Positions 30,401 to 59,405 of a DNA stretch of 64,000 bases are shown here, piece after piece; within the stretch, counting starts at the first letter, position 1; each line of letters starts with the position of its first letter. The stretch covers positions 21,139,681 through 21,203,680 of the forward strand of contig OU612071.1 of the NCBI GenBank assembly GCA_914767715.1, read 5' to 3'. The translations under genes and the position numbers were made by a program. This DNA comes from Membranipora membranacea (taxonomy: Eukaryota > Bryozoa > Gymnolaemata > Cheilostomatida > Membraniporidae). The notes below the pieces were generated by a model. It saw only the letters and a program-made list of their open reading frames with translations, was not told the origin of the DNA and did not search any database.

Positions 30401-32871
30401 TAGATTTGATGATTGACTTTCTATTCATGCATATGTAAAATTAGGGAATAATATACCTCACTGTCAATAAACACATCGGCTAACTTTTTTATTCGCACAA
30501 AATAATATTGAATGAAATTAGCTGGGTACAATGTAACTGTTGGGTCAGAGGGTGCTTCACTTGATAGTAAAGATTTTAAATTAATTTAACTGTTGCTTGG
30601 TAGATTTTGATGGATTGAAAAGTGTGCCAACATGCACAGGATCACTGTGATGCAACATGTCATCCCAGCTCTTCTACACCCCCCCCCCCCTCCCAGCGCA
30701 ACACCAAAAAATCCAGCCTGACATAGCACTTTATACAAAGTATGCCAAGTCCTTATTACCTTAAAAATCTCAGCTTTGACCATCATTAATTGTCGCTAAT
30801 TGTCAAATGGGTTTTGTTCCATTGTATCTTTATTCTGCATGGTTGTGTATATTCGTTGACAACTTAGCCCATATCAAGACTATCAACTGATATATAAATA
30901 GTTTTTGTCTGCATGATATCTGATGAAAATCCACTCACTTGAGAATGCTCCGTACATATTTAGTTTCTCGGACATCCTCATCGGTTCCTCCACTCCCCTC
31001 GCCCGCTCGTGCAGCATCCATCTTCAGCTGAATACTCGCGTTAAAGTCGGCAGTCCACTCCTCCGACAACCTCTGGTATTCCTCATTGCTCTCTCTGGAC
31101 AGACTAGAAATGAAAATAATAAAATAATGTCAAAGAAATGCCATGGGTATCTAAACCTACTGTAATTTTTTTAGGGATTGATGAATTGCAGTGTTCAATA
31201 TTGGATTGTATGTAAACAATTACCTTGTTTACTACCAGGTAAACACCTTTTTTCAAATGAAAAGTTTATTTTGATATGAAGGCTGAGTAGAGACAGGTGG
31301 TCTTTAACAGCTCAAATGGTCGAATATGTTTGAAGAAACACAATGCGCTCTACACATCAGACAGTATTAGTATGATAGCATTGCTGTTGAAAATGAAATA
31401 CGGGAACATTTTTGACCTGGTTTAGTATTCAGTTAGAGGACCAAGTTCCAAAGAGCCACTCTTAACTGCAATATTCAAAATCCTAAGAACTTACCTCAAC
31501 GTAATGCCAGTGCTGCATCTGTCGTGGATGATGGAGTAGATGGGGGAAATGTCTCTCATGTTTTCAGGAAAGTTCTCTTCAAGGTTTGTATGCGCCTTCT
31601 CCATGACATTGCTGGCAATTCTAGTGCTGTTTGGGCAGCAAATAAGAAACCTCTCCATAAAGCCATCATTTCGCTGCTTTATATCGTAGAAGTTGGTGAG
31701 AAAAGGTTCCGGCTGATGATACCCAATGATACAGGTTGAAGTGGCTGGTATCTCTGACTGTATCATTTTGCCATCTGAGGTTGACGTTAGCAGCGTTTGT
31801 TCCCTTCCATCGTATAACTCGCAGAAGAACGTCCTCTCGGATAAACCTTGCTTTTCCATTCTGAAAAGAATAAGAGGGGATGTGTGTGTGTAGGGTCGTT
31901 CTTAAGGTGGGGGGGGGGGATACACTCAAGAGGGCTTTTAAGTCTCATCAACTTAATTGATGCTTTTTGTAAACTGAACAATAGCATCTGATTCTTTGTG
32001 ATAACAACCTCCTACTGTATTGCAAACAAGAATGAACCCTATCCTAAAACTTTCAAGTACATCGACAAGACAAGGGAGGCGATTACATATACAATGTGCA
32101 TAAATCAATGGATGTGCCAACACATTCTCATGCTACATTCCCTTCAGCATTGGGATGAATTATTTTTACTGCTCCTTGCTGATATCTCAGACCTGCTAGA
32201 TTCTGTTTGGCGATTTAAAATCTTACCTGACTACGTATGCGAAGAAGGTGTCCATCTCTTCATAGGCCATTAAACAGTGACCGTTGGACCGCTGTATATG
32301 AGACAATAATCCGTTCCTGCTCCAGTTAGAGTCCACCAATATCTCTTTCGTTCCGTCCACCTTCTTTATAACTTGTTGTGCCAGATCAAACGCACCAGAT
32401 TTATCTGCAAAATTAAGTTGAACATAAATATGGAATAATGAATAAGGTTCTCGATATAGGTTGTACTCAAACCATATCTGTCCAATATTTTAAGTTATAA
32501 ATCATACAGTCTGGGTTCCTGGCTTTCATTATTGATGAGTAGGCATATCCAGTGGTAGCAATTAATTTAGAATTTTATTTAATAACCCAACTTTCTATAC
32601 TTGGTTTTATCAATAATAACAAGGTCCCCTCACTCCTATTCTACAGCTGATCAGACAGTCATGACAGTAAATATAAACCAAATCCTATGTACTTACTGGC
32701 ACCACTTTCTCCAAGGATGCACATATAGAGGTTGAACCGTTCCTCATGGTAACCTTTGGCCAACTCAAGTTTCCCTTCAGATCCACATATTGCTGCCAAT
32801 GTGGGGAGTACGGATAACAAAACAAATTCAGGTCTCACTCTTTTAGCATGGGATACAAGTTCTAGCCATTC
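27089..32871 (-). CDS. Multi-exon gene with DUF3987-like ATPase region (partial)
   Basis: Four consecutive minus-strand exons have clean GT/AG borders and matching phase: 32697-32871, 32227-32404, 31495-31860 and 30939-31103. Exon 1 carries 'EWLELVSHAKRVRPEF' and ends GESGA; the next codon is split, so that G-x-x-G-x-x-K-S, a P-loop, is assembled across the intron. Exon 2 holds 'HCLMAYEEMDTFFAYV', a possible Walker B region (YEEMD). Exon 3 has TSTCIIGYHQPEPFL and 'RNDGFMERFLICCPN', matching the Q-P..L and R-(N/x)-D-G-F-x-x-R-F-L pattern of DUF3987 proteins, a family known from phage and plasmid primase/helicase-like proteins. Exon 4 starts LSRESNEEYQRLSEEW. Likely later parts (29.55-29.7 kb and 27.09-27.48 kb) are listed separately. 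No first exon or promoter was found to the right of 32871. Role unknown; a mobile-element or virus-derived replication ATPase is my guess. Confidence 0.65.
28608..28916 (-). CDS. Open frame, basic N-terminus with Ser/Gln-rich tail, 102 codons
   Basis: Starts MVKRKQHTVQAYGSKKRVKN, a strongly basic, nuclear-localisation-like stretch, then becomes Ser/Pro/Gln-rich ('PPHSQSQQPAASPLNQ'). It lies between the putative 5th and terminal exons of the DUF3987-like gene on the same strand, so it could be an internal exon, the start of a nested gene, or a transposon ORF1. No domain is recognisable. Confidence 0.35.
   Translation of the reverse strand: MVKRKQHTVQAYGSKKRVKNRVQNFKKTKSSSCTPLATQPESSPSCSTTAALMEQPHSLSLLLSDDAQSVEPPHSQSQQPAASPLNQCTTPSQSSLPSSAKI
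29550..29690 (-). CDS. Exon-like piece with one in-frame stop
   Basis: Ends at a consensus donor (CCAG|GTGAGTTG). The frame VPEIDGVPQIRREIQAETFN continues 'RAAKLS', meets a TAA, then continues YFASQRHILFQ to the donor. The 'I..E....A..L..YF..Q' spacing fits the end of a DUF3987 domain. Its phase does not join exon 30939-31103 directly, so an exon between them is missing or lost. The stop suggests decay, or that this exon is not used. Confidence 0.4.
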
Positions 32872-35435: not shown

Positions 35436-37135
35436 CTTGATGACCAGCCATGTGATTACCGTGGTATGATTTCATTACTGTTGTTTTTAGATTTGATGGG
35501 ATTACCAATTGTTTTATTATATCCATGTTCCTACCCCTTGGTTGATAAATGTTGTAAAGCACCCCATCAGAAATGACCATATCCTTTGATCTTGAAATAA
35601 CAAGTCTTGCAGTCTTGTCATCATCTGGTACTTTACTAGGTATTCAAAGTATGGTATTAAAGCTGGATCATCACTTAGATCCTTTGAAATGTCTATGAAA
35701 TCAACAGCAGCTGCTGTTATTGTATTAATGCTTTTGCACCCATACTCTATATGTGTGTGTTTAGCAGGCCCCCTACTTTGTTTGCTGGCTTGTGATTCAC
35801 ATTTAATGTCTGATTCACCCAAAATTGTGGGGAGCACAGGAAGGTTGTCAACAAGGTCAAGCGGTGTTTGTGGTTCTGTTTGCTTATAAGGCCTCCTGGA
35901 AAGGCAATCAGCTGCATTGGTATTAGTTTCTTTTGTGTGTTTGATGTCATAGTTGTAAGGCTGAAGCAATAGTGACCAGCGACCTAGTCTGCCCTTAGTG
36001 TCCTTTATGCTTTTCAACCATTTGAGGCTAATGTGGTCAGTGAGCACCAAAAAGTGTTTATCAGCAAGGTAATGTTTGTATTTCTCTACTGCTGTAACCA
36101 GGGCTAGTCCCTCCTTGTGTGTTATAGAATAATTTTGTTCAGCCCCTCTATATGATCGCCCACCATATTCGATAACAGTTTCTGCTCCATGTGAATCAAC
36201 CTGGCCCAAAATGTAACCAATTGCAGTGTCAGAAGCATCAGTGTAAACCACAGGTTTATGGTCAGGATTTGGCAATGTCAATATTGGTGCTGATATCAGT
36301 GCTTCCCTTATACTTACAAATGATGCCTGATGTTTATCTTGCCACACAAAATCCTCATCCTTTTTCAGGGTTAGGAGTTCATGCAGTGGATTAGCTATAG
36401 TGCTGTACTTTTATATCAATCTCGAATAGTAGTTAGCCATGCCAAGGAAAGACCTTACATCACTCACACAAGTTGGAATTGGAAATTTAAGCACCGCTTT
36501 AACTTTATTCACAGATATTCACAGATAATCCCTTGTCACTTATTTTATAGCCAAGATATGGGACCTCGGAGCAAGCAAATTTACATTTGTCTGGATGCAG
36601 TTTCAGGTTAGCCTGCTCCAAGCGATCAAACACTTGTTTTAGGTGTGTTTTATGATCATCCCAGGTCTCAGAAAATACAATGATATCGTCGATAAATGCC
36701 AGACAATGGTTCCAGCTTATGCCTTTCAACGTCTTAGACATCACGGCTTGGAATGACATGGGCATATTCATTAGTCCAAAGCTACACCTATTAAAGATGT
36801 ATACTCCGTCATGAGTAATAAAACTAGATTTTTATTTGGTTTCAGGGTCTAGTGGGACCTGATAGAAAGCACCTTTGTGGTCTAACACAGCGAAGGTATT
36901 TAAACAACCTCTGTGAAGTTTGGTAATGGTCAAATCATTGGTTTTGTGACTGCATTAATTTTGCGGTAATCTACTGCCATTCGCCATGATACACCGTCCG
37001 CTTTCGGACACTATCGGGCTGCACCATTGGCAGTCATCATTTTCATAAATGATACCTAGGTCTAGCAGTTCTTTGACCTGCCGTGTTATCTCTTGTTTTA
37101 TTTCTGGAGATGATTTATAAGGGAACGACCTGACA
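35380..37135 (-). pseudogene. Ty3/gypsy pol relic: RT, RNase H, integrase zinc region
   Basis: Minus-strand order: RT N-terminal half (about 37135-36800, with stops), RT palm 36505-36771 with 'CLAFIDDIIVFSETWDDH' (the YxDD box as FIDD) and a K-L-H-P-D-K-C-K-F thumb-side block, RNase H from about 36300 with 'PVVYTDASDTAIGYIL' and VLTDHISLKWL, an 'ADCLSRRP' end, a spacer, then the HHCC side of integrase at 35430-35580 ('YHGNHMAGHQG'). The integrase core is missing: the sequence breaks at 35436 into the inverted arm. The main open part (35517-36347) is 276 codons. The LTR-like end joins RT directly at about 37135, so gag and protease are deleted. Cannot transpose by itself. Confidence 0.85.
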
Positions 37136-38889: not shown

Positions 38890-39461
38890 GGGAAGGTGAT
38901 ATCCCCTCACAAGATGCAATCTTTGGCGTGGAAATTGATCTTGCCACTCCACCATTTAAGGGACCGCAGACTAGACACCGCTAGCCCAATAAATATAGTT
39001 CAAAATATTGACCTTTTCACTTTAAAATGGGAAAAATCGGGATTGTTTGATGTGACACCAAACACCAACTTGAGCTATTAAAAGGACATGCCAAAGAAAG
39101 TTGTTAAAGTTTTATCCCTCCGTCATGTGGAACTAACAAAAACGAAAACATTCACAAACAACTCAATAGAACTCTTCTGACCCATTCATGCACTATAGGG
39201 CCTGAGTTAGCAGAAGCACTTGTAACTCTATTATTCATTCACCTTGGAAGGAAGAAAAAAATATTTCCAATAAACATGAATTATGATCCAATGTGTCTTC
39301 TGAAAATTTCAGACGGGCAGACTAAATCGCCCGAAAAATCTGTAGTTGATACCCTAATCAGTATTCCTCAGTCTTCAATTGAGAAGTTACTGCAGCTCAC
39401 CAATAAGCTTTTGACTATGCTTGCGTCCATACCTGGCAATAGAATGAATGATCCAACATAA
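38890..39461 (+). pseudogene. Decayed DNA-transposon transposase region upstream of the OTU domain
   Basis: In frame from about 39108 the sequence reads SFIPPSCGTNKNENIHKQLN, then 'IGPELAEALVTLLFIH', and stays open to 39461. The 'C/P-G-T-N-K-N-E-x-x-H-x-x-L-N' block is a hallmark I associate with the end of a transposase core in several animal repeat-encoded proteins, where the Glu is a candidate catalytic residue. Upstream, 38887-39000 gives short in-frame pieces (VNAGKVWEGDIPSQDAIFGV) broken by stops. Superfamily not assigned. A +1 frame change separates it from the OTU frame. Confidence 0.45.
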
Positions 39462-40591
39462 TGCTGCAATTAGACAAAAAATCATTCGACTCATCAAGAT
39501 TATCTAACGAGCACGACCACAATTCAGTTTTAATCGATACCTTGAAAAAGTATAACAAGAAGCTAGTTCCCATTGCTGCTGACGGAGATTGCGCATTTGC
39601 GAGCATTGTAAGATACCTGATTGGTCACTGGGCGATTGTGAAGGAAAACATCACCTTGCTAAACCACCTAGAGTCTAACCTGTGTATAGATATCGATAAT
39701 GAAAACCTATCTATTTTTAAACTTAGAAGTTCATACGTTGACTACCTTATTGAAAATGAGGAAAGCATTTTTCCTCATACAACACACACTACCAGCGAGA
39801 ACTATTTAGTTGAGCTCAATAGCTACAGGAAGTCTGGGATATGGGCTACAGAATTGGGAGATATGGTTATGGAGTTGCTACCAAATATTTTGGGCTGTCC
39901 AGTTATAATATTTACCCCCATAGCAGGTTATGAAATAGCAAAATTTATTCCAAGCAAGCCATTGTTTGAGAATTTTCCGATTTTCCTTGCACACACTCCT
40001 GGACATTATGATAGCACTATGGATGACATCCCTCGATGCAAAACGGTAGATACTTGTAACAATTCATTGAGTATTACAATTAATCAAAAACTACAAATGC
40101 ACTCCTCATGCCGTTGCGGAATAAATTAAAAAAATGCAAACAGTATAGCTTGTCGCTCAACAGCCAATCCAGGCTACAGATCACGATGCCCCTGCCTAAA
40201 AAACAGCAGTGCCTGCAAAATTACGTGTCAGTGCAAAAATTGTGGCAACCTGTATGGCTCTGACATTGTTCAAGTAAAGTCGAGTCACGGATCTTTTACA
40301 CCTAGACAAAGAGAGTGCCATTCACAGTACCAGCATGCAAGTGGTAAAGACTTTGTTGCAGATGCAATCAACAAAGGGTGTGGGAAATGGTCAAATGCGG
40401 AGACAGCACTCCTGTACAATGTGTATGTACATTCTCGTGAGGGATTTTATCTCCGTGCACCTACTAAAGAGGCAATATTCAAAACTTTCAATGAAGCAGC
40501 CTCATCAGAGTTAAAAATGCAGTTCGGACTTGGTGCCATCAGAAACAAGACAAAATCACAAATTGTTCCAAAATTGTCCTCAATGCAGTGA
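39461..40591 (+). pseudogene. OTU-type cysteine protease plus Cys-rich (CXC-like) domain, one nonsense codon
   Basis: Residues about 35-50 read LVPIAADGDCAFASIVRYL, the OTU active-site block (Asp, then the nucleophilic Cys in G-D-C). About residue 180 gives 'PIFLAHTPGHYDST', the His block. These are the two diagnostic halves of an OTU deubiquitinase fold, at the usual ~150 residue spacing. After 222 codons a TAA (40127-40129) interrupts the frame inside a Cys-rich region: CRCG before the stop and, in the same frame afterwards, RCPCLKNSSACKITCQCKNC, then open again to a TGA at 40589-40591. That cysteine spacing resembles CXC (tesmin/TSO1-like) zinc modules found in transposon proteins. The ATG overlaps the stop of the preceding frame (TAATG), so the start is arbitrary and the protein was probably longer at its N-terminus. 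Likely carried by a DNA transposon. Confidence 0.7.
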
Positions 40592-42892: not shown

Positions 42893-43632
42893 CAATTCGC
42901 CAATGCACATTTTGCCAATGCTATGTTTTGCCAATCACAAATCGCCAATCACATTTTGCCAAAGACATTTCGCCAATCTTATTTTGCCAATCACTTTTCG
43001 CCAAAGATGTTTTGCCAATCTTATTTTGCCAATCACATTTTGCCAAATACATTTTGCCAATCTCATTTTGTCAGTCACATTTTGCCAAAGACATTTTGCC
43101 AATTTCATTTTGCCAGTCACATTTTGCCAAAGACATTTTGCCAATCTCATTTTGTCAGTCACATTTTGCCAAAGACATTTTGCCAATCTCATTTTGTCAG
43201 TCACATTTTGCCAAAGAAATTTTGCCAAAGAAATTTTGCCAGTCACATTTTGCCAGAGACATTTTGTCAATCTCATTTTGCCAATCATATTTTGCCAAAG
43301 ATATTTTGCCAATCATAAATTGCCAATAACATTTCGTCATCGCCGATTGCCAATTAAGGCGTACAAATATTCGTTCCAAAAAGGCTTCATGATGATGGTA
43401 AGGAATGCGTACTGGGTCAACTGTCGGGATGGGACGAATCCATTGGTTTTGAGCACGCGCAATCAGCACTTATTGATTGTTCCCTCCTCATGGTTCTGGT
43501 TTACTATCATCATCCCTTTTTGCTGTGACCATTACCATAACCGATATCAGCTCCTATATTTTATCCAAAAAATTCAAATTTCAGACTAGATCGTTGACCG
43601 CAAATCTGGTTTTGTATTTGCTATCATCAAAT
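42893..43632 (+). repeat. TGCCAA minisatellite element, copy A
   Basis: About 450 bp of ~14 bp half-units (ATTTTGCCAATCTC and ATTTTGCCAAAGAC, alternating to give a ~28 bp higher unit) is followed by about 280 bp of unique sequence: CTTCATGATGATGGTAAGGA, CGCGCAATCAGCACTTATTG, CCCTTTTTGCTGTGACC, CGCAAATCTGG. All three plus frames and one minus frame stay open because the unit length avoids stops; the apparent 130-230 codon proteins (for example 42903-43589) are artefacts. Confidence 0.9.
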
Positions 43633-43634
43633 GT

Positions 43635-44550
43635 GTAATGTCAGATGGTAAGCCATATAGTTTAGTGATGGCATCATATCTATTCTGGAAATTACTCTTT
43701 ATGTTTATTGTGCTGCTCGTTCATAAATCAATTAGGAACCTATTGAAATCATTTCAATAATATGTTGAATGCACACATTTTTGTTTTAATACTTTATTGG
43801 AAGAATTTTCATTCTCAAAGAATGTTTTACAATATAAGCCTTGAAAAGAAAAAAAAATTAAATAGTAGATTGACAGAAAAGATATTATCGTGTTACCTGT
43901 GAAAAATAATGTTGGGAAGAATGAATTTCAAATAAACTGACGGCCATGGTGGCAACCAAGGTTGAAGGTAAGCTGTTTTAACAGGACGCTATAATATTGT
44001 TTAAAAGATTATTTGTTGACATAACATTGACATAACGTGTGAAGTCAATGGTTGCAGGCCAGAGGCCTAGCCTACAGAGGAAAGGAAAATCTATCATTTT
44101 TTCTGCAACAAGTTATTGTATTTAAAATAAATGCACTAAAATAGTGAAATAAAATAAAGCAGCGGCATGGTAGGATAAGTCCAGGAATAGTGAGGCGACC
44201 CTGTCAGGACAATGAAGCTTACTTTCTACAAGGCTAGCCTACTTTGGATTCAAACCACACCCCGCAGCGAGGACGCCAAACTCTCACGCAAGGCAAAAGG
44301 AGCCGCCCCCTCCTCCCCCAGTTGGTAGGAATTCAACAAGTTTGCACCAAGTGGCTGTTACGGCTGGGGTTTTGATTTCTAACTCGCCATTATTATTAAA
44401 AAGTAACAATTTACGGTATTTAACAATCATTTCAATGGGCACAATTTGATTCACAGAAAAGAAATAGGTCACATAACTATGTGGGCGGATTTTTGAAGTG
44501 AATAGGTGTGATTTAGATGACAATATGCGACATGACCATAAAACTCAATA
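43635..44550. other. No gene recognised
   Basis: AT-rich, no supported feature. A short minus-strand frame at 44284-44523 has a Gly run from a CCCCTCC tract and is not convincing. Confidence 0.5.
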
Positions 44551-44558
44551 CCATAAAT

Positions 44559-44822
44559 TTAATGTGGATAAAACAATGTGTTATACAATTTGATCATCGT
44601 ATGAATATTATGATATGGTTGTACACAACGCATTAAAAATAGGATGTACTTCAATTTCCGACAAACTTTTAAAATATTTGTTTTTAAAACTATGCTCTCA
44701 TCAAGGTGAATGCCGAGAAATTTTATGACCTTTTTTTTTAATTTCGTGATCATTAGAAGATATATTTGTGTCGTCGGCAATTTGACTTCCACTGGGGGAT
44801 GCTTTATAGATTGCCTGTTCAA
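44559..44822 (-). pseudogene. LINE reverse-transcriptase fragment (post-palm region)
   Basis: The minus-strand frame reads KVIKFLGIHLDESIVLKTNI, then 'RKLKYILFLMRC' and IKLYNTLFYPH. The 'K(F/Y)LG(V/I)..D..L.....I' block followed by '(L/I)..LY..L.YPH' is the segment after the YADD box in LINE reverse transcriptases. No palm motifs remain upstream. Orientation is opposite to the LINE that starts about 180 bp to the right, so these are two separate insertions. Confidence 0.6.
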
Positions 44823-44989: not shown

Positions 44990-46765
44990 GATAATGATAA
45001 AGCTTTCAGTTTTCCAAAATTTGCTTTTCAAGAAATTACATCGAGTGAGGTGTCTAAATATCTGCGCACATTGAAATCACGTAAAACTGGGGGAATAAAA
45101 TCAGATCCCTGCCTTTATTTATAAAATCCTAGAGCCTTTGATTCTGAATCCATTGACACATATTGTTAATCTGAGCCTTAAATGTCAAGAGTTTCCAGAT
45201 GTGTGGAAAAAAGCCTTAGTAATTCCAATTTTCAAAAGTGGCAAGAAAAGTTTGCCAAATAATTATAGACCAATTTCGCTATTGCCAATATTAAGTAAAG
45301 TCCTAGAAAAGATAATAAATTACCAAATTCGTGATTACCTGGAAATTAATGATCTAATAGCCTCTCGCCAATTTGGTTTCAGAAATGGAACATCCACTGA
45401 TCAAATTTTAACTCAACTAGTCAACAAATTTCGTTCCCTGCTGTCAAAGCACGAGTCAAAATTTGTCACAGTTTCTGCACTTGATATCCGTAAAGCTTTT
45501 GATTGCGTAAACCATAAGATCCTTGCCAGTAAACTGTTAACGAAATTCAATTTCCACTCTAATGCATCAAATTTAATTAAAAATTATCTTTCAAGTCGAG
45601 AGCGGGCCATGAAAGTTAATGGTTGTGTATCTGAATGCAGTCGAGTTATAACTGGTGTGCCGCAGGGGTCTGTACTTGGACCACTCCTGTTTATCATGTT
45701 TATTAACGATCTGATGGAGCTCAAAAATTGTTATCTATATGCTGATGACTGCCTACTAGTCACCAGTGGGGAAAACCCAGACATTTCCACAAAACTTATG
45801 GAAAAAAGCATTCATCAAGCATCCAGTTGGTACAGTGAAAATTGCCTTGTTCTAAACAGCGGTAAAACGGATGTCATGACCATTTCTAATAAACGTAACA
45901 TCAAACCTCCGGTACTTAAATTTAATAATCTCATTTTCAAACAATCTGACAAAATTAAGTACTTAGGTGTGATTCTTGATAACAAATTAAATTTTAAATC
46001 TCATACCAGTAAAATTAAACAAAAACTTTATCCAATAGTCACCAACTTTCAATGTAATAAAAAATTCCTGACACCTAAATTAGCTAAGCTTTGGTACATT
46101 GGACTTATACGTTCTAATCTGGAAGACAGCTCTCCTGTTTTATAAAAGAATTTTTAAAAATTGAGAATAGATGTTTGAAAATTATAGACTATAACAGTTC
46201 TAAAGATAATACTCGAAAGACCTACAACATCCCTGTTTTAACTTTGCGTTTCGAATATTTGTATCTGCTGACGTTTTATAAAATTGTTTATAGTTTAGTC
46301 CCAATAATTGATACAAATCTGCTCCCCGAGAAATTAACTAGTGAAACTCGGCTTGCTAAAAGTTCTGGGTTTAGACTATCCAAGGAAAATTTTAGATTTG
46401 CTTTAGCTAATTTTGGTGCTCAGAAGTTTAACGAATTACCCAATCATGTTAAGCTGAGTCAATCCCTTGCTACATTCAAAACTGCCACTCGGAGCCACGT
46501 CCTCAAACTTCTCAATTAATGAGTCAGTTCTTTTCATTTCATTTTAGCCTACTGCTACATTGTTCTAACTTTTCTTTTCCTAGCTATTGTGTATCAACTT
46601 GTGTAATGTTTTACTGCTAATTAATGCCTGCGTGTACGTTGTAATTTTACCTGTCATTGTTCTTGATTTTTAGTTACATGTCTTTTTAATTCTACACCAT
46701 ATTTTTATCAATTTTCTGTTTTCTGGGTACAAGTCCTAAGGACTTATTCTTCTCCAGAATAAACA
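44990..46765 (+). pseudogene. 5'-truncated LINE (non-LTR retrotransposon), RT and 3' end
   Basis: The open frame 45138-46145 (335 codons) holds the reverse-transcriptase core: 'NYRPISLLPILSKVLEKII', 'RQFGFRNGTSTDQIL', SALDIRKAFDCVNH (catalytic Asp), TGVPQGSVLGPLLFIMFIND, LYADD (catalytic box) and KYLGVILDNKLNF. Upstream, 45000-45105 continues in another frame ('SKYLRTLKSRKTGGIKSD'), so there is a 1 bp shift near 45107. A second shift near 46135 separates the RT from the C-terminal domain at 46145-46519 ('RFALANFGAQKFNELPNHV', 'LATFKTATRSHVLK'), the tail typical of CR1/Jockey/L2-like elements. The endonuclease and ORF1 are absent (5' truncation). The 3' end runs through CCAGAATAAACATGGAATA into (TA)n. 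Clade not decided. Confidence 0.85.
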
Positions 46766-48902: not shown

Positions 48903-49583
48903 AGATCACAGCAAATACAAATCCAGATTTGCGGTCGACAATATAGTCTGAAATCTGAATTTTTTGGAAAAAATACAGGTGCTGATATCGGTAATTGTAA
49001 CGGTCACAGCAAAAAGGGATGAGGATAGTAAAACCAGAACCATGAAGAGGGAACAATCAATAAGTGCTGATTGCGCGTGCTCATCAAAAACAATTGGAGT
49101 CGTCCCATTCCTTACCATCATCATGAAGCATTTATGGAATGAATATTTCTACGCCTTAAATGGCAGTTAAATTTAATTGGCAATTAAATAATTTGGCCTT
49201 AATTGGTTGACGAAATGTTATTGGCAATTTATGATCGGCAAAATGAGATTGGCAAAGTATCTTTGGCAAAATGAGATTGGCAAAATGAGATTGGCAAAAC
49301 ATCTTTGGTGTAATGTGATTGGCAAAATATGACTGGCGAAATGTCTTTGGCAAAATGTGATTGGCAAAATAAAATTGGCAAAATGTCTTTGGCAAAATGT
49401 GACTGGCAAAATGAGATTGGCAAAATGTATTTGGCAAAATGTGATTGGCAAAATAAGATTGGCAAAACATCTTTGGCGAAATGTGATTGGCAAAATAAGA
49501 TTGGCGAAATGTCTTTGGCGAAATATGATTGGCGAAATGTGATTGGCAAAACATAGCATTGGCAAAATGTACATTGGCGAAAT
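48903..49583 (-). repeat. TGCCAA minisatellite element, copy B (inverted)
   Basis: Reverse complement of the element at 42893-43632: unique part 48903-49165 (CGCGCAATCAGCACTTATTG and GCAAATCTGGATTTGTATTT on the minus strand), then the array 49195-49583. Both start with the same TTCGCCAATG.ACATTTTGCC and share the unusual unit CAATGCTATGTTTTGCCAAT, so both copies come from one parent including its end structure. Confidence 0.9.
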
Positions 49584-49589
49584 GTCTGC

Positions 49590-50098: not shown

Positions 50099-51110
50099 TC
50101 ACATTATTTCACATTTCAGCTGAGATTTAGACCAGTGAGCTTTAATACAATCAAGTTGTTTTTCTCTGTGTAGTTGCACTTTAACTGTATGCTGATCTGC
50201 TTGATAGTTCGAGGTTGCTATGATCGGTGGAATTCTAGCTGTTATGGGGTCCCTATTTTTAGCCTCAACACTACAAATCCCTCCATCTAGTTCAGACCTA
50301 TATCTTGTATCCAGTAGCTTCCATTTGTCAATGGTTACCTAATCTAATGTATAAACCCTTGGTTGGTCAGTCAGCTCTTTAGCCAATGATGTTAAGGTAA
50401 ATCTGGCATCCTGTGTTAAAGATAAAGCCTCATGTTCGCCCATGGCCTATGCCATGAGATGTGCCAGGGTGGTCTTCATGCACCTTGGCTCTCAATAAAG
50501 GCATAACGTACTGACTCTAAACTTAGTGTCCACCACTATGAGCTTAAAAATCCTATAGAGCTCCATGAACCTATTGATACACCCTAACAATGATGCCTGT
50601 TCTTTTGGCATCAGGCCCATAATCAAAATAAATATGGCAACAGAATCAGCCATCTCCCCAAACAACAGATTAAACATGTAATAATGTGGTCTATTTTTCA
50701 GGCCTTCATCATCCATGTGTTCCTCGAAAATTGTTTGAGAGGCTGCCTGATTCATGTTTGAGCAGACACTTGCTCTAGCATGGATTGTACCTTGCCATAA
50801 CATGTCACAAGATTATCTGGTACCCTTGTGATTGCCTTGCTGCTTTGGACTCATGAACTCAAAAACAGCTGTCTCAATAAGGCCCTGGTCTCTAGTTGTA
50901 TGTGGCAATGCTTGATACACCCCATGCCTTGACAAAACCGAGGTAGAACACTTGGACAGATAGTTTCCTACATAATATGGCACTGAGTCAAGGAGAGTAT
51001 TGTCGAACCACTTTTTGAGTTCTATTTGGGACCATTCATTGATGTCTACAGTGGACCATAAGTTCTGGTAAGTGAAGGCTCCAATAAAAAAACCCACATC
51101 CTGATAGAGC
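50099..51110 (-). pseudogene. 3' part of an SF3-helicase-like gene, separated from its 5' part by an hAT
   Basis: A single minus-strand frame runs from the transposon edge to a TGA at 50099, broken by four stops and no frameshift: TAA 50813-50815, TGA 50492-50494, TAG 50447-50449, TAG 50339-50341. Just after the second stop lies MKTTLAHLM (50465-50479 codes MKTTL), in the position of a Walker A loop whose Gly residues are lost. About 40 codons later VYTLD is followed by a stop where a second acidic residue would be expected (Walker B). Then come LDGGICSVEAKNRD and PPIIATSNY (50207-50230), which fit motif B' and motif C (hydrophobics then T/S-N) of superfamily-3 helicases. The order and spacing A, B, B', C fit that family. 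The D-D-like B motif and PP..-T-S-N favour the papilloma/polyoma-like branch over the parvovirus one; this is motif reading only. It would be a replication helicase; as it stands it is broken. Confidence 0.5.
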
Positions 51111-51174
51111 TTACAGCAGGGGCGGATTTTCAGAAAATTCAATAGGGGTCTTGGCCAGGAATTTTAGTGTTTCT

Positions 51175-51300
51175 CTGAGGTGCGAAGCGCCTCAGCCGTG
51201 GGCACGTAGCGCCCGAGCCAACCCAGCTGGGGGTTTGGGGGGCGCTGTAAGCCCCCCGACAGGGTCCGGGGCGGAGCCCCGCCCGCCAAGGCTTTTTAGG
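51175..51300. other. GC-rich subterminal region of the hAT
   Basis: Contains short inverted words (GAGGTGCGAAGCGCCTC, GGGGCGGAGCCCCG, GGGGGGCGCTGTAAGCCCCCC) that can fold into hairpins. Such subterminal structure is plausible as transposase binding sites. Composition differs sharply from the AT-rich surroundings. Confidence 0.6.
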
Positions 51301-51656
51301 GTGTATTTTGGGCTCAGGAGGGGTATTTCGGACATTATCAGCTAAGCTATGCCACACTGGCAAATGGTCAACAAAACACAGACATACCTAAATCGTCAAT
51401 AAGTGTTGTGTAGTCAAATCAGCTGGGGGGTTTGGCCGCTGAAGAATTCAACAAGTTTCAGAGCTCTAGATTTTAATGTAAGCGTGGTAAAGCTACATAC
51501 CTGATGATTGATATACATGAGACATATGATGAGATTGTGATACATTTAATATAGGATAATACTTTCCATCGATCTCCAAAACAAAAGAAAACATGAATTA
51601 ATATTAATGCCAGAAATGTTGGTATGATTAGCATGACAGGTGTCACTACTCCGCTA

Positions 51657-54600
51657 GTGGATTAAGCAGGAGTAACCTCCTTCTCTTCATTGCTATAAAT
51701 GAATTTACGAGAGTTTTGCCATCGAGGCTCTGAAGAATGTCCCTGTGTTTATAACCTAGCACAAAAGCATTTAAAGAAGCCTGGCTCAATGAAGACCGGA
51801 GTCGTGTCTTGACAAATTTTAAAGTCGAGTTGGCTCTTTCAGTAGAAGCACTGGTAGCAGCAATTTGAGGAGATATGTGACATTAGGGTAATTCACACTA
51901 GCCTCTGCCGCCTTGTATGCTTTCAATAAATCATCTGGTAGGGCTGTTCCTGCCTGTTTGTACTTAACATACCATGATGCTAGCTCCTGCTCTGTCTCCA
52001 GAGAGGGTAAATCGTCTCTATGAAGAGCACATATCTCCATAACCTTCTCCAGAAAATGTCTCAGGTCAGTAGCTGACATTATGCTGGGTACCAGGTAGAA
52101 GCCTAAATAAGCAATCTAGCTTGTTTTCTGTAACAAACGAAAAGACGAATACAAAGCAAGTTCATTAAATATTTTCTATGGCGGCTATTAATCACTAGAC
52201 GTATTGAAGTCAGTGACATGAAAAATAATGTTTAATAAATGGTGTCAACTAAAGAGTCGCGGATTGAAATTATATTCTGATTGGATAGAATCATGAACAT
52301 GTGAAGTTGTCTCACCTTTGACAAGCTCTGGAGACTGTACGAATCTCCTTTTCAGGTCAGTCAGGAGATGGTCTATGTAGGGCAGAAAATAGGCAAGCTT
52401 GTAATACTCCTCTGCAGTGTCACTTGAGTGGTTGGCCCTTAGAGTCTGCCGACTTGCTATTCTAGGTATTGGCACATGGTCGCCATATAAGGTCTCAACC
52501 TTATGGAACAGCCTTGTGTATTCATCACTCTCTCTAGCTGCAGCCACAGCATCTATTACCTCCCCTACATCTCCATATGCACTATGGATATCTTTGGTAG
52601 ATCCTAGATGCGATTAGAAAGCAACACTTCTTAACAACAATAGAAAATCGTAGTCAGAGTTAATCATTGTATTTGCATTCAAACCTATCTGACAGACTTC
52701 ACTCCTACATATACAATGTTTTCTTGATCGTAGCATAACTAATTTCCCTAATATTTCAGATTGCCAATCAGGAGAAGGTGAACTGCACGCATCAATTTGC
52801 AGGATCTTCTACTCTCGACTGGATAATGAAATCACAGTTTATGATAGTCAACAGAATGAACTGCCAACTCACCTTGCAATTTAAGGCTTAGCTGCTTAGT
52901 ATAACCTAACATGTGTTCTGAGATCACAAATGCCACAAGAAACTCTGGCCGCTTTAGATAGCTGAGAAGTCCACTGGCTTCAGAGACAGTCTTTGTATCA
53001 TGACATTGACCTGATAACTCCTCTAAAGCTGTTAGTACATATTTGTACATTGTCATCAGTTCTGTCAGTTTTGTATGTCTTTCTACCCAGCGTGTTGTAG
53101 ATAGCAGCTTCAGCTGTGGTGAGAAAGAAGATTTCAAGCTACAAAATTAGAAACCTGTGAATGTTGTGGAAAAATCAAAAACTGGTTTAGATTTGCAACA
53201 CACTATTGGATTGGATAAAATTATGACACACATGTCAATTTTAAAATAATGACAAGAGAAGGACTTGATCGGGATTTCAAAGCTCTGATTTGGCTTGTAT
53301 TATTGCTTCATTGTTATTATGGCTGATTTTGGAGTTGCGAAAGAGTAATATTTTAATGAAAGGTACATCCCTTCGATTCAAAATTTGCAAAATTTCCTTT
53401 GTTACAGATATAGGTGGGTCAGCTTTTTCTAATATTCCTTGCAAGATGTTGGACTGTTTTGGAGAGTACTTGAAGAATATCCCCAGTTTCTTGATATTCT
53501 CCATCATCACACGGAATTCCTGCACGGTGGAGGTGGCATTGAGTGATAGATTGAGGCGATGGCTACAGCAATGAGTGAATACTGCCTTGGGTTGAATATG
53601 TTTGATATGTGCTTGAGCACCATTGAGATGCCCGCTCATGTTAGAGGCACCATCATATGTCTGACCACGACAGTCCTCTATGTCATACCCCAAGCGTTCC
53701 AGGCACGAGATGATCGCTGTTGCTACGGTCTGCCCTCTGATGTTCTCCAGATCAATGTATTCAATTAGGCGCTCACGGATTATCCCACCCTGTTGTACAG
53801 TACGAATTACAATCGCCAGCTGCTCTGTGTTTGAGCAATCAGTTACTTCATCCGCTGAGACGGCGAAGATGAACTTCCCTTGTTGATTTCGTGACTCAGT
53901 CACTATGCTTCTTTGTAGCTCCTTCAAAAATACACTTACGAAGTCAGCTTGTGCACATTTGCTAAGGTAGCCTGCATATGTGCTTGTCTGGCACTTCTTC
54001 AGATGTTTTGTAACACCAGATCAAACTTGGCCCTGCTCCGTATATCTTCTTTGAAGTTGCCCAAGTTGATATAATCGTCTTCATCTATCGAAGGAATGCT
54101 ATCATCTCGATGACCACGCAGAGCACTTCCCTTCGATACACAAGATCGCATGACCTCAATTAGCCGTTCTAACACCTGCTGGTTGTGTTCAGCTGTCTCC
54201 TGTTGACCATTCAACAGCTTTTCCTGAATTGAATTCTTTTGACCGCTAAATACACCCTCGAACGACTCCATGCGAGTCGGAAAATATATCAGCATTGTAA
54301 GTTCCAGCAACTTACATTAGTACTGTAAACACTATGTTACTTCCTGCTATGGGTACCAGTGCGAAATATGGTCATTGGGGCAAAATACTTGCGGTTTTGT
54401 AACTATGTCTACTCATAGAAATTGTTTTAGTAAAATTTGTAATGTGAGGACTCACCACACAATGGAAATGACTTCTGTTACTGTCCGAGGTGTGCAGCTT
54501 TATTCTATCATAGAATTTCTTCCAGTTATTAAAGGGCTTGTTTACTAACTGTTCAGGTTTACGTCCTCTGTCATCTCCTTGTGTTGGAAATAGGCGACAA

Positions 54601-55129
54601 GGGACACAGTATACCCAATCATCCTTCTTACTGTAGGCTAGAAACGGATAGGTTTTAAGTTTATCCACAGAACACCTTCTCTTCGTAACCCCACGGCTGT
54701 TTCTACTCTCCGTGAATTCCCGATCTGGGAACTGATAACTGTAAAATATTAGAATAAGATATAATATATGATGGTCACTATATGTGGTGTGTTACAATTT
54801 TCATGCTAAAGACTGACTTTCACAAGTATGCTTACTCTTCCATGATCTGGGCGGTTATCAAAGTTTGGTCATAAAGGTTTGTCACTGGCCAAAAACAAAA
54901 CTATGTCTGCAATCATATCACGTTGACCATACCTGGCATCATAATACGGCTTGTTCTTTATGAAGCTATACTTTAGGGCAGGTTCAGATTTGGATGTGAT
55001 GGATGTTATATCATTGGTGTCAGATTCAGCGGTGTCTGCTGATGTACCCTCCAGTGGTTCCTCTACTATTTCCTCAATCTGCGGGACAGCCACATGGACA
55101 CTGCCACCTTTATCTGTTTCATCTATCAT
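51657..55129 (-). pseudogene. hAT transposase (TTF zinc finger, DUF4371-type core, dimerisation tail), multi-exon, frameshifted
   Basis: Exons visible on the minus strand: an acidic N-terminal piece about 55129-54846; 54456-54738 with a TTF-type finger ('YCVPCRLFP', then NNWKKFYDRIKLHTSD and a His), ending at a GTGAG donor; 54310-53277 with SALRGHRDD, 'GNFKEDI', 'FIFAVSADEVTDCSNTEQLA' (core Asp region), GQTYDGASNMSG and CCSHRLNLSLN; 52873-53138 with 'STTRWVERHTKL' and a GTGAGT donor; about 52315-52609 ('IPRIASRQTLRANH'); and 52079-51657 with YPNVTYLL and, in another frame, STERANSTLKFVKTRLRSSL, the C-terminal dimerisation block, to a TAG at about 51657. It would cut and paste its own element. 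Breaks: a 1 bp shift near 53990-54005 and another near 51850. Introns are consistent with hAT genes of invertebrates. Confidence 0.8.
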
Positions 55130-56569
55130 ACAAAGAAAGATTAGACAGAAAGCTATAATATATTGTGAATGGTGATCGCCTCTGACTGAGAATGTCGGCC
55201 CATGTAAAGCAAACTATTCTTTGCTTGAGCATTTCAGCTGAGCTGGCTTGGTATGATCTGTAAAAGGACTCCATCAGGCCATTTACAATCAAAGTATGTA
55301 GTGAAGTATATAGAACATGCAGGAACATGCAATCAAGAAGCAGCATGAGATACTTTTACACACAACCTGTAGTAATTAAAATATTATCACACTCAACTAA
55401 GGCTTTCTGCATTGATAGCTACTGAGTCATCATCATAATTACTGTATGCTATTCTCAACTGTATTTATTCCAGTCATTATCTCCTCCAGCAAGCACAATA
55501 GCACACTATTTAAGTTGTAACTTGGAAAAGGTGGGGTCAAAACATTGGCATAGCTCTGGGAACTGGCGCGTTCTGGGCTGTCGCTGACACATAGTCGGAA
55601 AACCCTGACTGGCATTCTGGGATGCCATCGGCTTAGCCGGGAAAACCCATGGCTGGTGGTATTCCACTACATATATCGAGCATACATACAGATGGTCAAC
55701 TGGCCATTACAACTAACTAGCTCACTTATATGACCTAACAAGGTTACACACTTAACACACACCATTGGTATCCAATCCATTCCATTCATACTCTCACCTG
55801 GACATACTGACAGACACACTCGATATCTATCTCTCTGGTAATTATTATTTACATCTAAACCTTCTGGCATACTGATATAAATCTTAGCTGGGCTAAGTTG
55901 AACCACCTTGCGATTGCTTCCAACCACGTATCACACAGCAAACTTTGTAACTACTTTTACCTGATCTTTCTGCTATGGTAGCTGAGCTATATAATGGATA
56001 TGATGTTATGATCCATGTTATGAGGCATGAGACAGGTGTAAAGCAAGGATAACCAAGAATCATAGTAGAGCTCTTTCAATTATGCATTAAATCAGAGGAT
56101 TGAATAGAACAGTTTACAATCTCTCTTTAGTTTTTTTAGGAAGAGGATGATAGTAGTCTTAGTAACTGTAGTTTAGTAGCTTGATGATGTAGCAAATGAT
56201 CTATTGCTGTGATGATGCTTTGATCAGGCTTTTGGATCTATCTTATGCTAACTTTCTGTCAACCAACAATACAGATGACCTTAAACACATATTTGGTATC
56301 AGAAGATCCCAGTAACATACCTTGTGAAGAAGTTTAATAAAGTCTTTTGCTTCTTTCTCTGTGGTTCAGACATGGCTCCCAAGTCTGGATGGCTCTAGAA
56401 GAAGTTAACCTTGACCTGGGCTTGACCTAATAAATCTAGACAAGAGGAGCTTCAAATCTTTCAGTTTTGGTAGAGCAGTTCAAATAGAACCCTGGATTCT
56501 TTGAGGATTACTGGCTATACAATTGCTTCCTGTTAGTTGCTAGGAAACATTAGAAAAACCCACACTTAA

Positions 56570-58006
56570 TTATAAACAAATCACTCGAGCAGTTGCAAGC
56601 AATGTGAAAACATGGAAACAATTTTTTTTTTTTTCAAATGACGCCATGCGACCATAGCAAAATCCGCCCCTGTTACAGTTGTGCATAAACCTGCTCTTAT
56701 TCCATGCATAGAACCCCTGGTTAGTGGCCGCTTTCTTTGTTTCAGTATATGCAAGATTAACATATTGCTTGGCCTGCTTTAATAGTGTTAGCTTTGTTGA
56801 CATCTGGTCTAGCTGTGACATCTGTTCCTGATACTTGTTATGAAACTCATTTATCTCAGGGGCATTCATATCAGTAAAGGATAATCCATCTTTAACAAGC
56901 CTATATTCTCCCCAGTTTTTAGGTATGGTGTCAAGGCATGTTTCACAGGATTCAGCTTTACAGGGGAGCCTTAGACTTTTGATCATTGCAGCTAAGAGAC
57001 TATCAGACACTGGGAGAAAGAGGTTAGCATTTAGGAGTGTGTCTATAAGCTCCTGTAGTGTGGTAAATGGCAGTATATTAGAGATAAGGTCAGGGCCTCC
57101 ATAATATTTGGTCATAGAAAGAACATTGACAGCTGTTGTGGTGGTAAGTGTTGCTAACCCAGTAAATTCTACCCCTGTTTCCTTAGTGAGCTTTTCACAT
57201 GCCAACTGAACCTTCTTTGTAGCCTCAACCACCCTGACTGATTTGTTAAAATACAGGAAGACCGAAATACCTCTATATCTAGGATTGGCTATAAGAGGCT
57301 GAACTGAGCTGGGAGCCCCACCTGAAGCACTGATAAAAGATATATTCCCTACTTCTAGATGGTGAGAATTAGGAGCGCCTATGATCTTAACTGGGGGCTT
57401 AATGGATTTCCCTTTTGACACATGCACAGGATTATGCAATGACGACAAAAAGGGTTTCCCAGTTTCATCTTTCCTAATTGAACATGAAAGGACCTTGGAC
57501 GTTGTAAATTTGGCCAATGGCCTGGACATGTTGTGGGTCACCTTGACAACCCTTTTAACCATAGCAGTTGTCGAATGAGCAAGCACATCAGCAGTCCTAT
57601 ATAATACAGCACATGCATTAGTAATAGCTAAATGTGACATAGAAAGATCATCCTCAAAAAACATATTAACCATGATACATTTACCCTGCTCCCTCCTAAT
57701 ACATTGATCATAAATATCTCTGTGATATTTTTTGTTTACAGAGCCTATAAAACACTCAAACTCACCGGCTGTGTCATTGGCAGAAGATATGTAGATGATA
57801 TCCTGAGGAATCTCAGCAGCAGGTATGTATGGGCCAGTATATGGCTGTATATTAATGTCATACATATCCTGTGATAGGATTTCGGTCTCAATGTCTGTTT
57901 TGCTGGTCACATCTATCGAACTCTGAGACTCGAACACCTTTTGATCTGTTTCTGATGTCTGTGTCAGTGTAATATCTATATCAGATCCAATCTGGCTGGC
58001 ACAAGG
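56570..58006 (-). CDS. 5' part of the interrupted SF3-like gene (long open exon)
   Basis: An exon that opens after a strong acceptor (TTATTTTATTTTAG at 58007-58020) and stays open for 443 codons to the hAT edge at 56673, then for about 34 more codons of transposon sequence to a stop at 56570. No known domain is recognised. Visible features: an acidic N-terminus ('TDIETEILSQDMYDINIQPY'), a basic stretch (MVKRVVKVTHNMSRPLAKF), 'KGKSIKPPVKIIGAPNSHHL', an ISASGGAPSS loop, a Cys cluster CKAESCETC, and 'MNAPEINEFHNKYQEQM' running into a helical region. The frame continues beyond the hAT at 51110 (feature 50099-51110). Upstream exons are not identified; an open piece at 58033-58254 on the same strand is a weak candidate. 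Not a single stop in ~1.33 kb of AT-rich DNA implies recent activity or selection. Confidence 0.6.
   Translation of the reverse strand, partial: PCASQIGSDIDITLTQTSETDQKVFESQSSIDVTSKTDIETEILSQDMYDINIQPYTGPYIPAAEIPQDIIYISSANDTAGEFECFIGSVNKKYHRDIYDQCIRREQGKCIMVNMFFEDDLSMSHLAITNACAVLYRTADVLAHSTTAMVKRVVKVTHNMSRPLAKFTTSKVLSCSIRKDETGKPFLSSLHNPVHVSKGKSIKPPVKIIGAPNSHHLEVGNISFISASGGAPSSVQPLIANPRYRGISVFLYFNKSVRVVEATKKVQLACEKLTKETGVEFTGLATLTTTTAVNVLSMTKYYGGPDLISNILPFTTLQELIDTLLNANLFLPVSDSLLAAMIKSLRLPCKAESCETCLDTIPKNWGEYRLVKDGLSFTDMNAPEINEFHNKYQEQMSQLDQMSTKLTLLKQAKQYVNLAYTETKKAATNQGFYAWNKSRFMHNCNRGGFCYGRMASFEKKKNCFHVFTLLATARVICL
56673..56678. repeat. Right target-site duplication of the hAT
   Basis: TTACAG, identical to 51111-51116 on the other side of the element. 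It falls inside codons of the SF3-like gene. Confidence 0.9.
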
Positions 58007-58009
58007 CTA

Positions 58010-59405
58010 AAATAAAATAATATAACATTAGATCACTGTGTTAACTTGTATATAGATATTAGGTAATAGTAGCCCTGTTCACACGGCCACGGGTTTTGGT
58101 ATCGTTCGCTATAGTATAAGTAGTTGTCTTCTGCTGTTTTAGCTCTAATCTTCGCCACTTTGAGCTTTGACTTTTTCCCTGTTCCATAGGCAAATAAATT
58201 AAATTTGTCATTTATCATATTCAAAATAAATATAAATAAGTTGATTGCACTCAATTTTGCAGCAATAATGTGAAAACATGGCTGAGCTAAAGGTTTTTAA
58301 ATAACCATGCATGCTCAAGGCGCATGCACATGTTAATTTTAAATCACCATGCATCACATGTGTAGGCTGAGTACACTAACAAAGCACACAAACTTATGTC
58401 AATACACTGCCCCATTGTTCTATCATACTAACTCTCGTGATCTGACTGGGCATGTAGATCACTGATAAACTAGGCTATCATTACCACAAAGCAGGTGTCG
58501 TAAGGCTAAGTATGCATCATGCGTGACTTGAATTTGCGCATGTGCAAGAACAATGAGTTTAGTTTGGGTTCTGATTGCAACTTTGGAAAGGGAAAATGGG
58601 ATATCCCCTGCATAAACTGTCAATCAAAATCAGCTAATAATGACAAGAGAGGATAACTATTAATAACAAATCCGCACGCTTTGGGGAGTATGACACCAGA
58701 GCAGGTAGCCAATCAGATGGCTTCGGAATTCCGAGACTCAATTTTGCAGAGATCAGCTCATGCCCAGAGCTGAGCATGCGCAGAATGTTGTTATATTGTG
58801 ATATAGCCTAAGCATCCTAGCCACTACACAACTCACGCTCATGCAAACAAATACTTTGATATAAAAGCTATCCAGTAGGCCTTATATTTGTGAAAGTTGA
58901 CATTATGACCACAGCAATTATAGCTTCTTGATCTCAGTCACTTGGTTAGGCAAACAGATATAAACATGCTTTGATAGGGTGAGTAGGAACAGGGCAAATT
59001 ATAACTGTTTTTTTATTTGGATTCATATTTTCAGCTTGCAATCAACAGTCTATCTATGTATTTTGTTTATATTCTATCTAACTAAGGAAGGTATTTGCTA
59101 GCAAACGTGTTGGCTCTGATCAAAGAGTACTCCTTGCTGTCATCCCATCAATCAGAGCCAACCCATTTGCTGGTAGGCTACTTGCCTCTCACATTGTTGT
59201 GTAGGAAAACACAGGTTTGTTGCTTTCAAGAATAAATGATACACAATGATTTTTGGAGAGAGAGGGCAGCTGTGATTTCTAATATTGTTAACTTTCCCTC
59301 TACCATACTGAATCAATAACAGTGAGCAAGGCTATTCCATTCATATAGAAGTAAACTGCCACACATCAGATCAGAACAAGGATTTACTCTGTTTTACTGC
59401 ATGGA
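58010..59405. other. Divergent intergenic region between the SF3-like and DUF6589 genes
   Basis: The two genes point away from each other here. I see no defensible promoter element. CATGCAT/GCATGC-type words cluster at 58300-58380 (CCATGCATGCTCAAGGCGCA, ACCATGCATCACATG), and CCAATCAGA occurs near 58710. Undetected 5' exons of either gene may lie here. Confidence 0.4.

What the first reader, a model, noticed from the sequence alone, without database searches (positions are those of the whole stretch)
50099..58006. Long helicase-like gene split by an intact hAT, with frame preserved across the break
The minus-strand frame of the exon 58006-56679 is interrupted by the hAT and continues in the same frame from 51110 once one copy of TTACAG is discounted. 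The downstream part carries the ordered remains of SF3 helicase motifs (MKTTL at the A position, VYTLD, LDGG, PPIIATSN). The upstream ~443 codons have no domain I recognise. A large protein with an unknown N-terminal region and a C-terminal SF3 helicase in animal DNA points to an undescribed large mobile element or an old DNA-virus integration. Seen: frame continuity, motifs, breaks. Inferred: helicase identity and origin.
Basis: partly seen in the sequence, partly recalled or inferred. Interest (0 to 1): 0.88.

Follow-up and report, generated by a model that had tools for sequence, protein, structure and literature searches.

The report
Fossil papilloma-type viral replicase gene
An animal chromosome carries the decayed replication gene of what was probably an old virus, with a DNA-unwinding enzyme like that of papillomaviruses; a jumping gene later cut it in two, and two much younger relatives with further virus-like genes lie on other chromosomes of the same genome.

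Summary
A 441-codon minus-strand frame (58006-56684) runs into a 5.6-kb hAT-like transposon (51117-56672) and resumes in phase at 51110. A second copy 178 kb away lacks the transposon and is open across the site. One 3' piece passes Pfam's cut-off for papillomavirus E1 helicase; its best structure hits are E1.

The same genome holds two younger relatives, on C3 and C4. C4 has an open 847-codon replicase frame that the window's pieces match in order. On the opposite strand lie a 573-codon frame and (whole only in C3) an 832-codon frame, both without known relatives. C3 and C4 carry the same segments in circularly permuted order, mostly 99% identical, in different flanks. C3 has ten 496-bp repeats between early and late genes.

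Best reading: a decayed integration of a circular DNA virus with an E1-type replicase, whose relatives integrated recently. E1-type replicases in invertebrate viruses, some integrated, are already reported (PMC11071296, sections 12 and 14 read); this gene set I did not find there. That the late frames are capsids, and how replication works, is inferred.

The parts
56684..58006 (-). N part of the replicase gene: 441 open codons, probably the start of a second exon
   Evidence: Open frame; 29% identity over 425 aligned positions to the C4 protein, 9e-43; AG acceptor context at 58007
58036..58218 (-). Candidate leader frame upstream (61 aa); membership in the gene doubtful
   Evidence: Present in the near copy, but also in an inverted repeat at L010:6931-7098; no significant match in the C3/C4 loci
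51117..56672 (.). hAT-like transposon that splits the gene
   Evidence: 14-bp terminal repeats identical; DUF4371 frame 54020-53280; absent at the same site in L002
51111..51116 (.). TTACAG target duplication, left copy
56673..56678 (.). TTACAG target duplication, right copy
50816..51109 (-). C part, piece 1 (98 aa)
   Evidence: 25% identity over 64 positions to C4 residues 443-505, 3e-4
50495..50812 (-). C part, piece 2 (106 aa), region before the P-loop
   Evidence: 41% over 76 aa to C4 residues 568-643, 3e-19
50450..50491 (-). C part, piece with the remains of the P-loop (MKTTL); bounded by stops
   Evidence: same place in L002 frame
50342..50446 (-). C part, piece ending in the Walker B remains (VYTLD)
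50102..50338 (-). C part, piece with LDGG and PPIIATSN: papillomavirus E1-type helicase
   Evidence: PF00519 1.1e-7, 31.8 bits; PDB E1 chains about 1e-3; 64% over 55 aa to C4, 2e-25

Best explanation
The split gene is the decayed replicase of an endogenised circular DNA virus with a papillomavirus E1-type SF3 helicase. In the young relatives the replicase gene and the late frames lie on opposite strands and their 3' ends face each other, the layout known from polyomaviruses (recalled). By analogy with E1 (recalled) the protein would bind the origin through its N-terminal half, form a hexamer and unwind circular DNA for host polymerases; now and then a circle was built into a chromosome. Shown: frame, motifs, family match, collinearity, transposon-free copy, circular permutation. 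Inferred: origin binding, hexamer, replication as a circle, capsid nature of the late frames. Not shown for the window copy itself: that it ever had late genes.
For: PF00519 over cut-off in 4 of 4 genome places found and in 0 of 14 control genomes; E1 as best PDB hits; window pieces collinear with the open C4 frame; transposon-free copy open across the site; C3 and C4 in circularly permuted order and with different flanks; old divergence with third-position excess, 32:26:65 of 123 differences; host repeats inserted in C3 and C4, so these are chromosomal and not contamination.
Against: The 573- and 832-codon frames have no Pfam or PDB match over any cut-off, so their virion nature is unproved; they occur on C3/C4 only and have no match in the C7 loci examined. 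No relative in six IMG/VR scans. The P-loop lacks its usual second glycine in 4 of 4 copies. The circle rests on two copies. Of the 14 differences between the C3 and C4 573-codon frames 10 are at first codon positions and 11 residues differ: no sign of purifying selection since they parted.
Confidence: 0.8

Rival explanations
1. A capsid-less mobile element: a plasmid-like or transposon-like circular replicon with an E1-type helicase that copies itself as circles and re-integrates; the two late frames serve something other than a particle.
For: Late frames without recognisable relatives; several places in one genome; integrated forms only were seen.
Against: PF00519 is a viral family; opposed early/late layout with two large late frames resembles small DNA viruses (layout recalled); no transposase or integrase match among the frames scanned.
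Confidence: 0.12
2. It belongs to a virus group already described, the RepE1-bearing cressviruses or the RepE1 adomaviruses of PMC11071296, and is only a further endogenised member.
For: That preprint reports E1-type replicases in cressviruses, with probable integration in two sea anemones, and in adomaviruses including one from a clam (sections 12 and 14).
Against: No Pfam match of the late frames to adenovirus-like virion proteins; the cressvirus names there carry numbers of about 3.5-4.5 kb, smaller than the three frames here together (about 6.8 kb). Its sequences could not be compared.
Confidence: 0.3
3. A domesticated host gene: the open N part is kept by selection for a host function.
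For: 441 codons are open in the window while the C part holds four stops.
Against: Since the segmental duplication the N part differs from its copy at codon positions 19:12:16, as densely as flanking DNA (47 of 1287 against 83 of 1966), and the copy's frame is broken. The C part shows 13:6:20, a weak third-position excess that I leave open.
Confidence: 0.04

Closest known systems
Papillomavirus E1 replicative helicase (PF00519; PDB 1tue, 2gxa, 2v9p, 7apd)
   Same: C-terminal SF3 helicase with Walker B, LDG...K and PP(I/L)(I/L)xTSN region in the same spacing
   Different: About 560-640 residues stand before the P-loop and match no known domain; P-loop without its second glycine; late frames on the other strand and not recognisable as papillomavirus L1 or L2
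RepE1-bearing cressviruses, some probably integrated in sea anemones (PMC11071296, section 12)
   Same: E1-type replicase in invertebrates; rearranged integrations
   Different: Three large frames here; late frames not identified; sequences not compared
RepE1 adomaviruses (PMC11071296, section 14)
   Same: E1-type replicase joined to other late genes, one case from a clam
   Different: No adenovirus- or adintovirus-like virion match found here by Pfam; sequences not compared
Polyomaviruses (layout recalled)
   Same: Early and late genes on opposite strands, a spliced early gene probable
   Different: Helicase is E1-type; no large-T or VP1 Pfam match

Membership tests
Papillomavirus E1-type SF3 helicase (PF00519) | Profile score over the curated cut-off of 26.5 bits | tested here: met
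   Window piece 31.8 bits, near copy 39.4, C4 54.3 and C3 57.7
Papillomavirus E1-type SF3 helicase (PF00519) | Walker A GxxxxGK[ST] (recalled) | tested here: not met
   Position 6 is F in C4, H in C3, M in L002 and M in the window; the window's P-loop is also cut by a stop
Papillomavirus E1-type SF3 helicase (PF00519) | E1 DNA-binding domain before the helicase (recalled) | tested here: inconclusive
   No Pfam match over cut-off in the N part; the fold could not be predicted
Papillomaviridae | L1/L2 capsid genes on the same strand as E1 (recalled) | tested here: not met
   Late frames lie on the opposite strand and have no Pfam match over cut-off
Polyomaviridae | Opposed early and late genes (recalled) | tested here: met
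   Seen in C3 and C4
Polyomaviridae | Large T antigen and VP1 (recalled) | tested here: not met
   No such Pfam match
RepE1 cressviruses / adomaviruses of PMC11071296 | Replicase branching with the RepE1 proteins of that paper | not testable with these tools
   Its sequences are not held; IMG/VR scans found no relative
Virus in general | Virion protein | tested here: inconclusive
   573- and 832-codon frames without sequence relatives; structure not predicted
hAT transposon | Short terminal repeats and, as a rule, an 8-bp duplication (recalled) | tested here: inconclusive
   14-bp repeats identical but the duplication is 6 bp; DUF4371 hit, no hAT dimerisation domain in the pieces scanned

The most novel reading that the evidence does not exclude
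This genome hosts a new family-level lineage of circular DNA viruses of invertebrates that joins a papillomavirus-type replicase (large unknown N-terminal half, altered P-loop) to a polyomavirus-like opposed layout and virion proteins of unknown kind; it has integrated from old times (the window copy) to the recent past (C3/C4) and may still circulate in the host.
Probability: 0.45. Interest if true: 0.87.

Novelty: new variant of a known kind. Interest (0 to 1): 0.74.

Why it matters
Papillomaviruses are known from vertebrates, and where their replicase came from is open (recalled; PMC10433990, passages seen, argues for an origin from invertebrate parvovirus-like sequences). An E1-type replicase present in one animal genome both as an old fossil and as near-identical young copies gives fixed points for that history, and the two late frames may be virion proteins of a kind not yet described. 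The host could be sampled for the free circle.

Tried and rejected
Neighbouring DUF6589 and RecQ-like genes (L010, inside a 13-kb stretch bounded by inverted repeats) were considered as parts of the same element; I set them aside because neither shows among the frames listed around the C3/C4 relatives, though those frames were not all scanned for domains. The copy at C7:21.37 Mb was first taken for an independent insertion; it is part of a segmental duplication (pieces 89-97% identical from 50178 to 72387). A 244-bp gap of C3 against C4 was considered as a lost intron; its edges do not fit splice sites exactly. Lone-sequence fold of the N part: useless (mean pLDDT 33.8). Search of the 5.8-billion protein set: nothing for the N part at E 0.1 nor for the near copy's helicase piece at E 0.01. 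Phage collection, N part: nothing. The host species stayed unnamed; a paper search meant to find it failed.

Full report
What was claimed and what is there. This is in the sequence. The N part is open for 441 codons up to the transposon; 100 first-order Markov windows never exceeded 215 open codons. The transposon occupies 51117-56672 with identical 14-bp terminal repeats and a 6-bp duplication, TTACAG; by phase arithmetic, nothing being joined, the frame resumes at 51110 when one TTACAG is left out. The C part has 4 in-frame stops in 336 codons; 2000 shuffles average 21.9 and none has 4 or fewer. It is a decayed coding frame.

The relative without the transposon. The window is C7:21139681-21203680 of a 339-Mb genome in 18 contigs. 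A DNA search with 1001 bases of the N part gave 6 matches: the window itself, a 91% match 178 kb away (L002), a 102-base inverted fragment beside that (L004), and three places of about 70% further along C7 (L003, L005, L006). L002 has no transposon: the N and C parts are adjacent, and 101 codons are open across the site. It lies in a segmental duplication whose pieces are 89-97% identical from window 50178 to beyond the window's end (72387 and further), next to a 12.4-kb inverted repeat (99.45%). The transposon is absent there, so it most simply came after the duplication. The three other places are copies of one block, 97.5-99.0% identical in long pieces, and hold about residues 60-201 of the N part only.

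What the protein is. Of the window's pieces one has a family match over cut-off: the 79-codon piece with LDGG and PPIIATSN, PF00519, papillomavirus helicase, 31.8 bits against 26.5. The matching piece of L002 gives 39.4 bits and hits the E1 structure 1tue at 3.1e-7. Parvovirus NS1 is far behind in L002 (0.14) and in C3 (0.014). A whole-genome search with PF00519 gave 4 matches, 4 of 4 over the cut-off, and 0 in 14 control genomes: the window, the L002 copy, and new places on C3 and C4. C4 has an uninterrupted frame of 847 codons. Against the 819 of these that lie in one locus (L028) the window's pieces align in order: N part 29% over 425 positions, 9e-43; 98-aa piece 25% over 64, 3e-4; 106-aa piece 41% over 76, 3e-19; 79-aa piece 64% over 55, 2e-25. 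A genome search with the C4 protein gave 9 matches, 9 of 9 in these four places; it did not list L003, L005 and L006. Counts are lower bounds by the tool's own words.

The young relatives. In C4, on the strand opposite to the replicase, lies a 573-codon frame and before it the last part of a longer frame, which is whole (832 codons, stop to stop) in C3. In C3 the order along the chromosome is replicase C part, 573-codon frame, 832-codon frame, ten 496-bp repeats (L034:2390-7349), replicase N part. On a circle the two orders agree, strands included. Matching pieces: 99.4% over 3454 bases, 99.3% over 752, 99.1% over 648 and 95.4% over 368. The 573-codon frames differ at 14 of 1719 bases, 11 of 573 residues. 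Outside the element I saw one 251-base match of 79% between the two 40-kb regions (matches of 100 bases or more), so the flanks are otherwise unrelated. Both are interrupted by other repeats: in C4 about 4.4 kb with PIF1-helicase frames (3e-16), in C3 about 6.9 kb that holds a repeat 93% identical to window 43023-44721. Neither has the three genes whole: in C4 the 832-type frame starts only at residue 354 and holds a stop; in C3 the replicase lacks its middle. The 573-codon frame gave 2 matches in the genome, C3 and C4. It and the 832-codon frame had no match in the window or the C7 loci, so late genes are not shown for the old copies. A candidate acidic first exon stands before the C4 frame, with a splice-like junction in phase and an acceptor at the frame's start (my reading, no RNA); the window frame begins behind a similar AG. 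The window's own upstream frame 58218-58036 has no significant match in C3/C4 and sits in an inverted repeat, so I do not count it as part of the gene.

Selection. Window against L003: 123 differences fall 32:26:65 on codon positions 1, 2, 3, so the family evolved under protein constraint. Window against L002: N part 47 of 1287, 19:12:16, as dense as nearby DNA (83 of 1966); C part 39 of 930, 13:6:20. The N part thus shows no constraint since the duplication; the C part's weak third-position excess I leave open. Between C3 and C4 the 573-codon frame's 14 differences fall 10:1:3: no sign of constraint since they parted.

How it most likely works. On the E1 model (recalled): origin binding by the N-terminal half, hexamer, unwinding, host polymerases. 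Only homology and motifs are shown here. The P-loop is odd: the residue before the lysine is F in C4, H in C3, M in L002 and M in the window, where glycine is usual (recalled). As the young copies share this it looks like a trait of the lineage; its effect on ATP use is untested. The tandem array between the early and late genes of C3 is where a control region would lie; a look for palindromes of 10 bases or more in two units found AT runs only.

Known or new. PMC11071296 (abstract and outline; sections 12, 14, 17; passages) reports E1-type replicases in cressviruses, with probable integration in two sea anemones, and in adomaviruses, one from a clam. So the kind is known. The combination here (long replicase, opposed late frames without known relatives, tandem array, old and young integrations in one genome) did not turn up in six answered paper searches, of which I saw listings (one search was on other terms); two failed. 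Six IMG/VR scans found no relative, nor did the phage collection (N part only). I could not compare with the preprint's sequences.

Limits. The virion nature of the late frames is untested by structure. The circle rests on two copies. The genome search with the N-part protein did not complete.

Noticed in passing
C7:21356000-21395999 (L011, L007, L008, L012): A 12.4-kb inverted repeat, 99.45% identical, around the near copy: a recent palindromic duplication or an assembly artefact.
   Followed up: partly
window 58071-58406 and L010:6743-7099: Inverted repeat of about 92% some 12.7 kb apart, with DUF6589 (3.4e-16) and RecQ-like DEAD-helicase frames between its arms; no target duplication seen at its outer ends.
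   Followed up: partly
C7 22.00, 23.22 and 24.17 Mb (L014-L019): Three copies of a long block, 97.5-99.0% identical in pieces, each with a fragment of the same N part: C7 has many recent segmental duplications.
   Followed up: partly
window 35520-36410 (-) and 45099-46142 (+): Retrotransposon frames (RNase H 4e-32; reverse transcriptase 1e-35); the second lies in a stretch with a 97.4% copy to the right of the window.
   Followed up: no
window 31494-31901 (-): Piece with DUF3987, 1e-6, over its cut-off.
   Followed up: no
window 39108-40588 (+): Three neighbouring frames, one with an OTU-like protease match just under cut-off and one with a weak Tesmin-type CXC match.
   Followed up: no
window 42899-43334 and 49213-49585: The same 42-bp tandem repeat in opposite orientation, also found in the insert within the C3 element.
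   Followed up: no
C7:21373413-21377385 (L002), about 21.376-21.382 Mb: A 5.65-kb insert upstream of the near copy's gene, with a transposase-like frame recognised by eye only.
   Followed up: no
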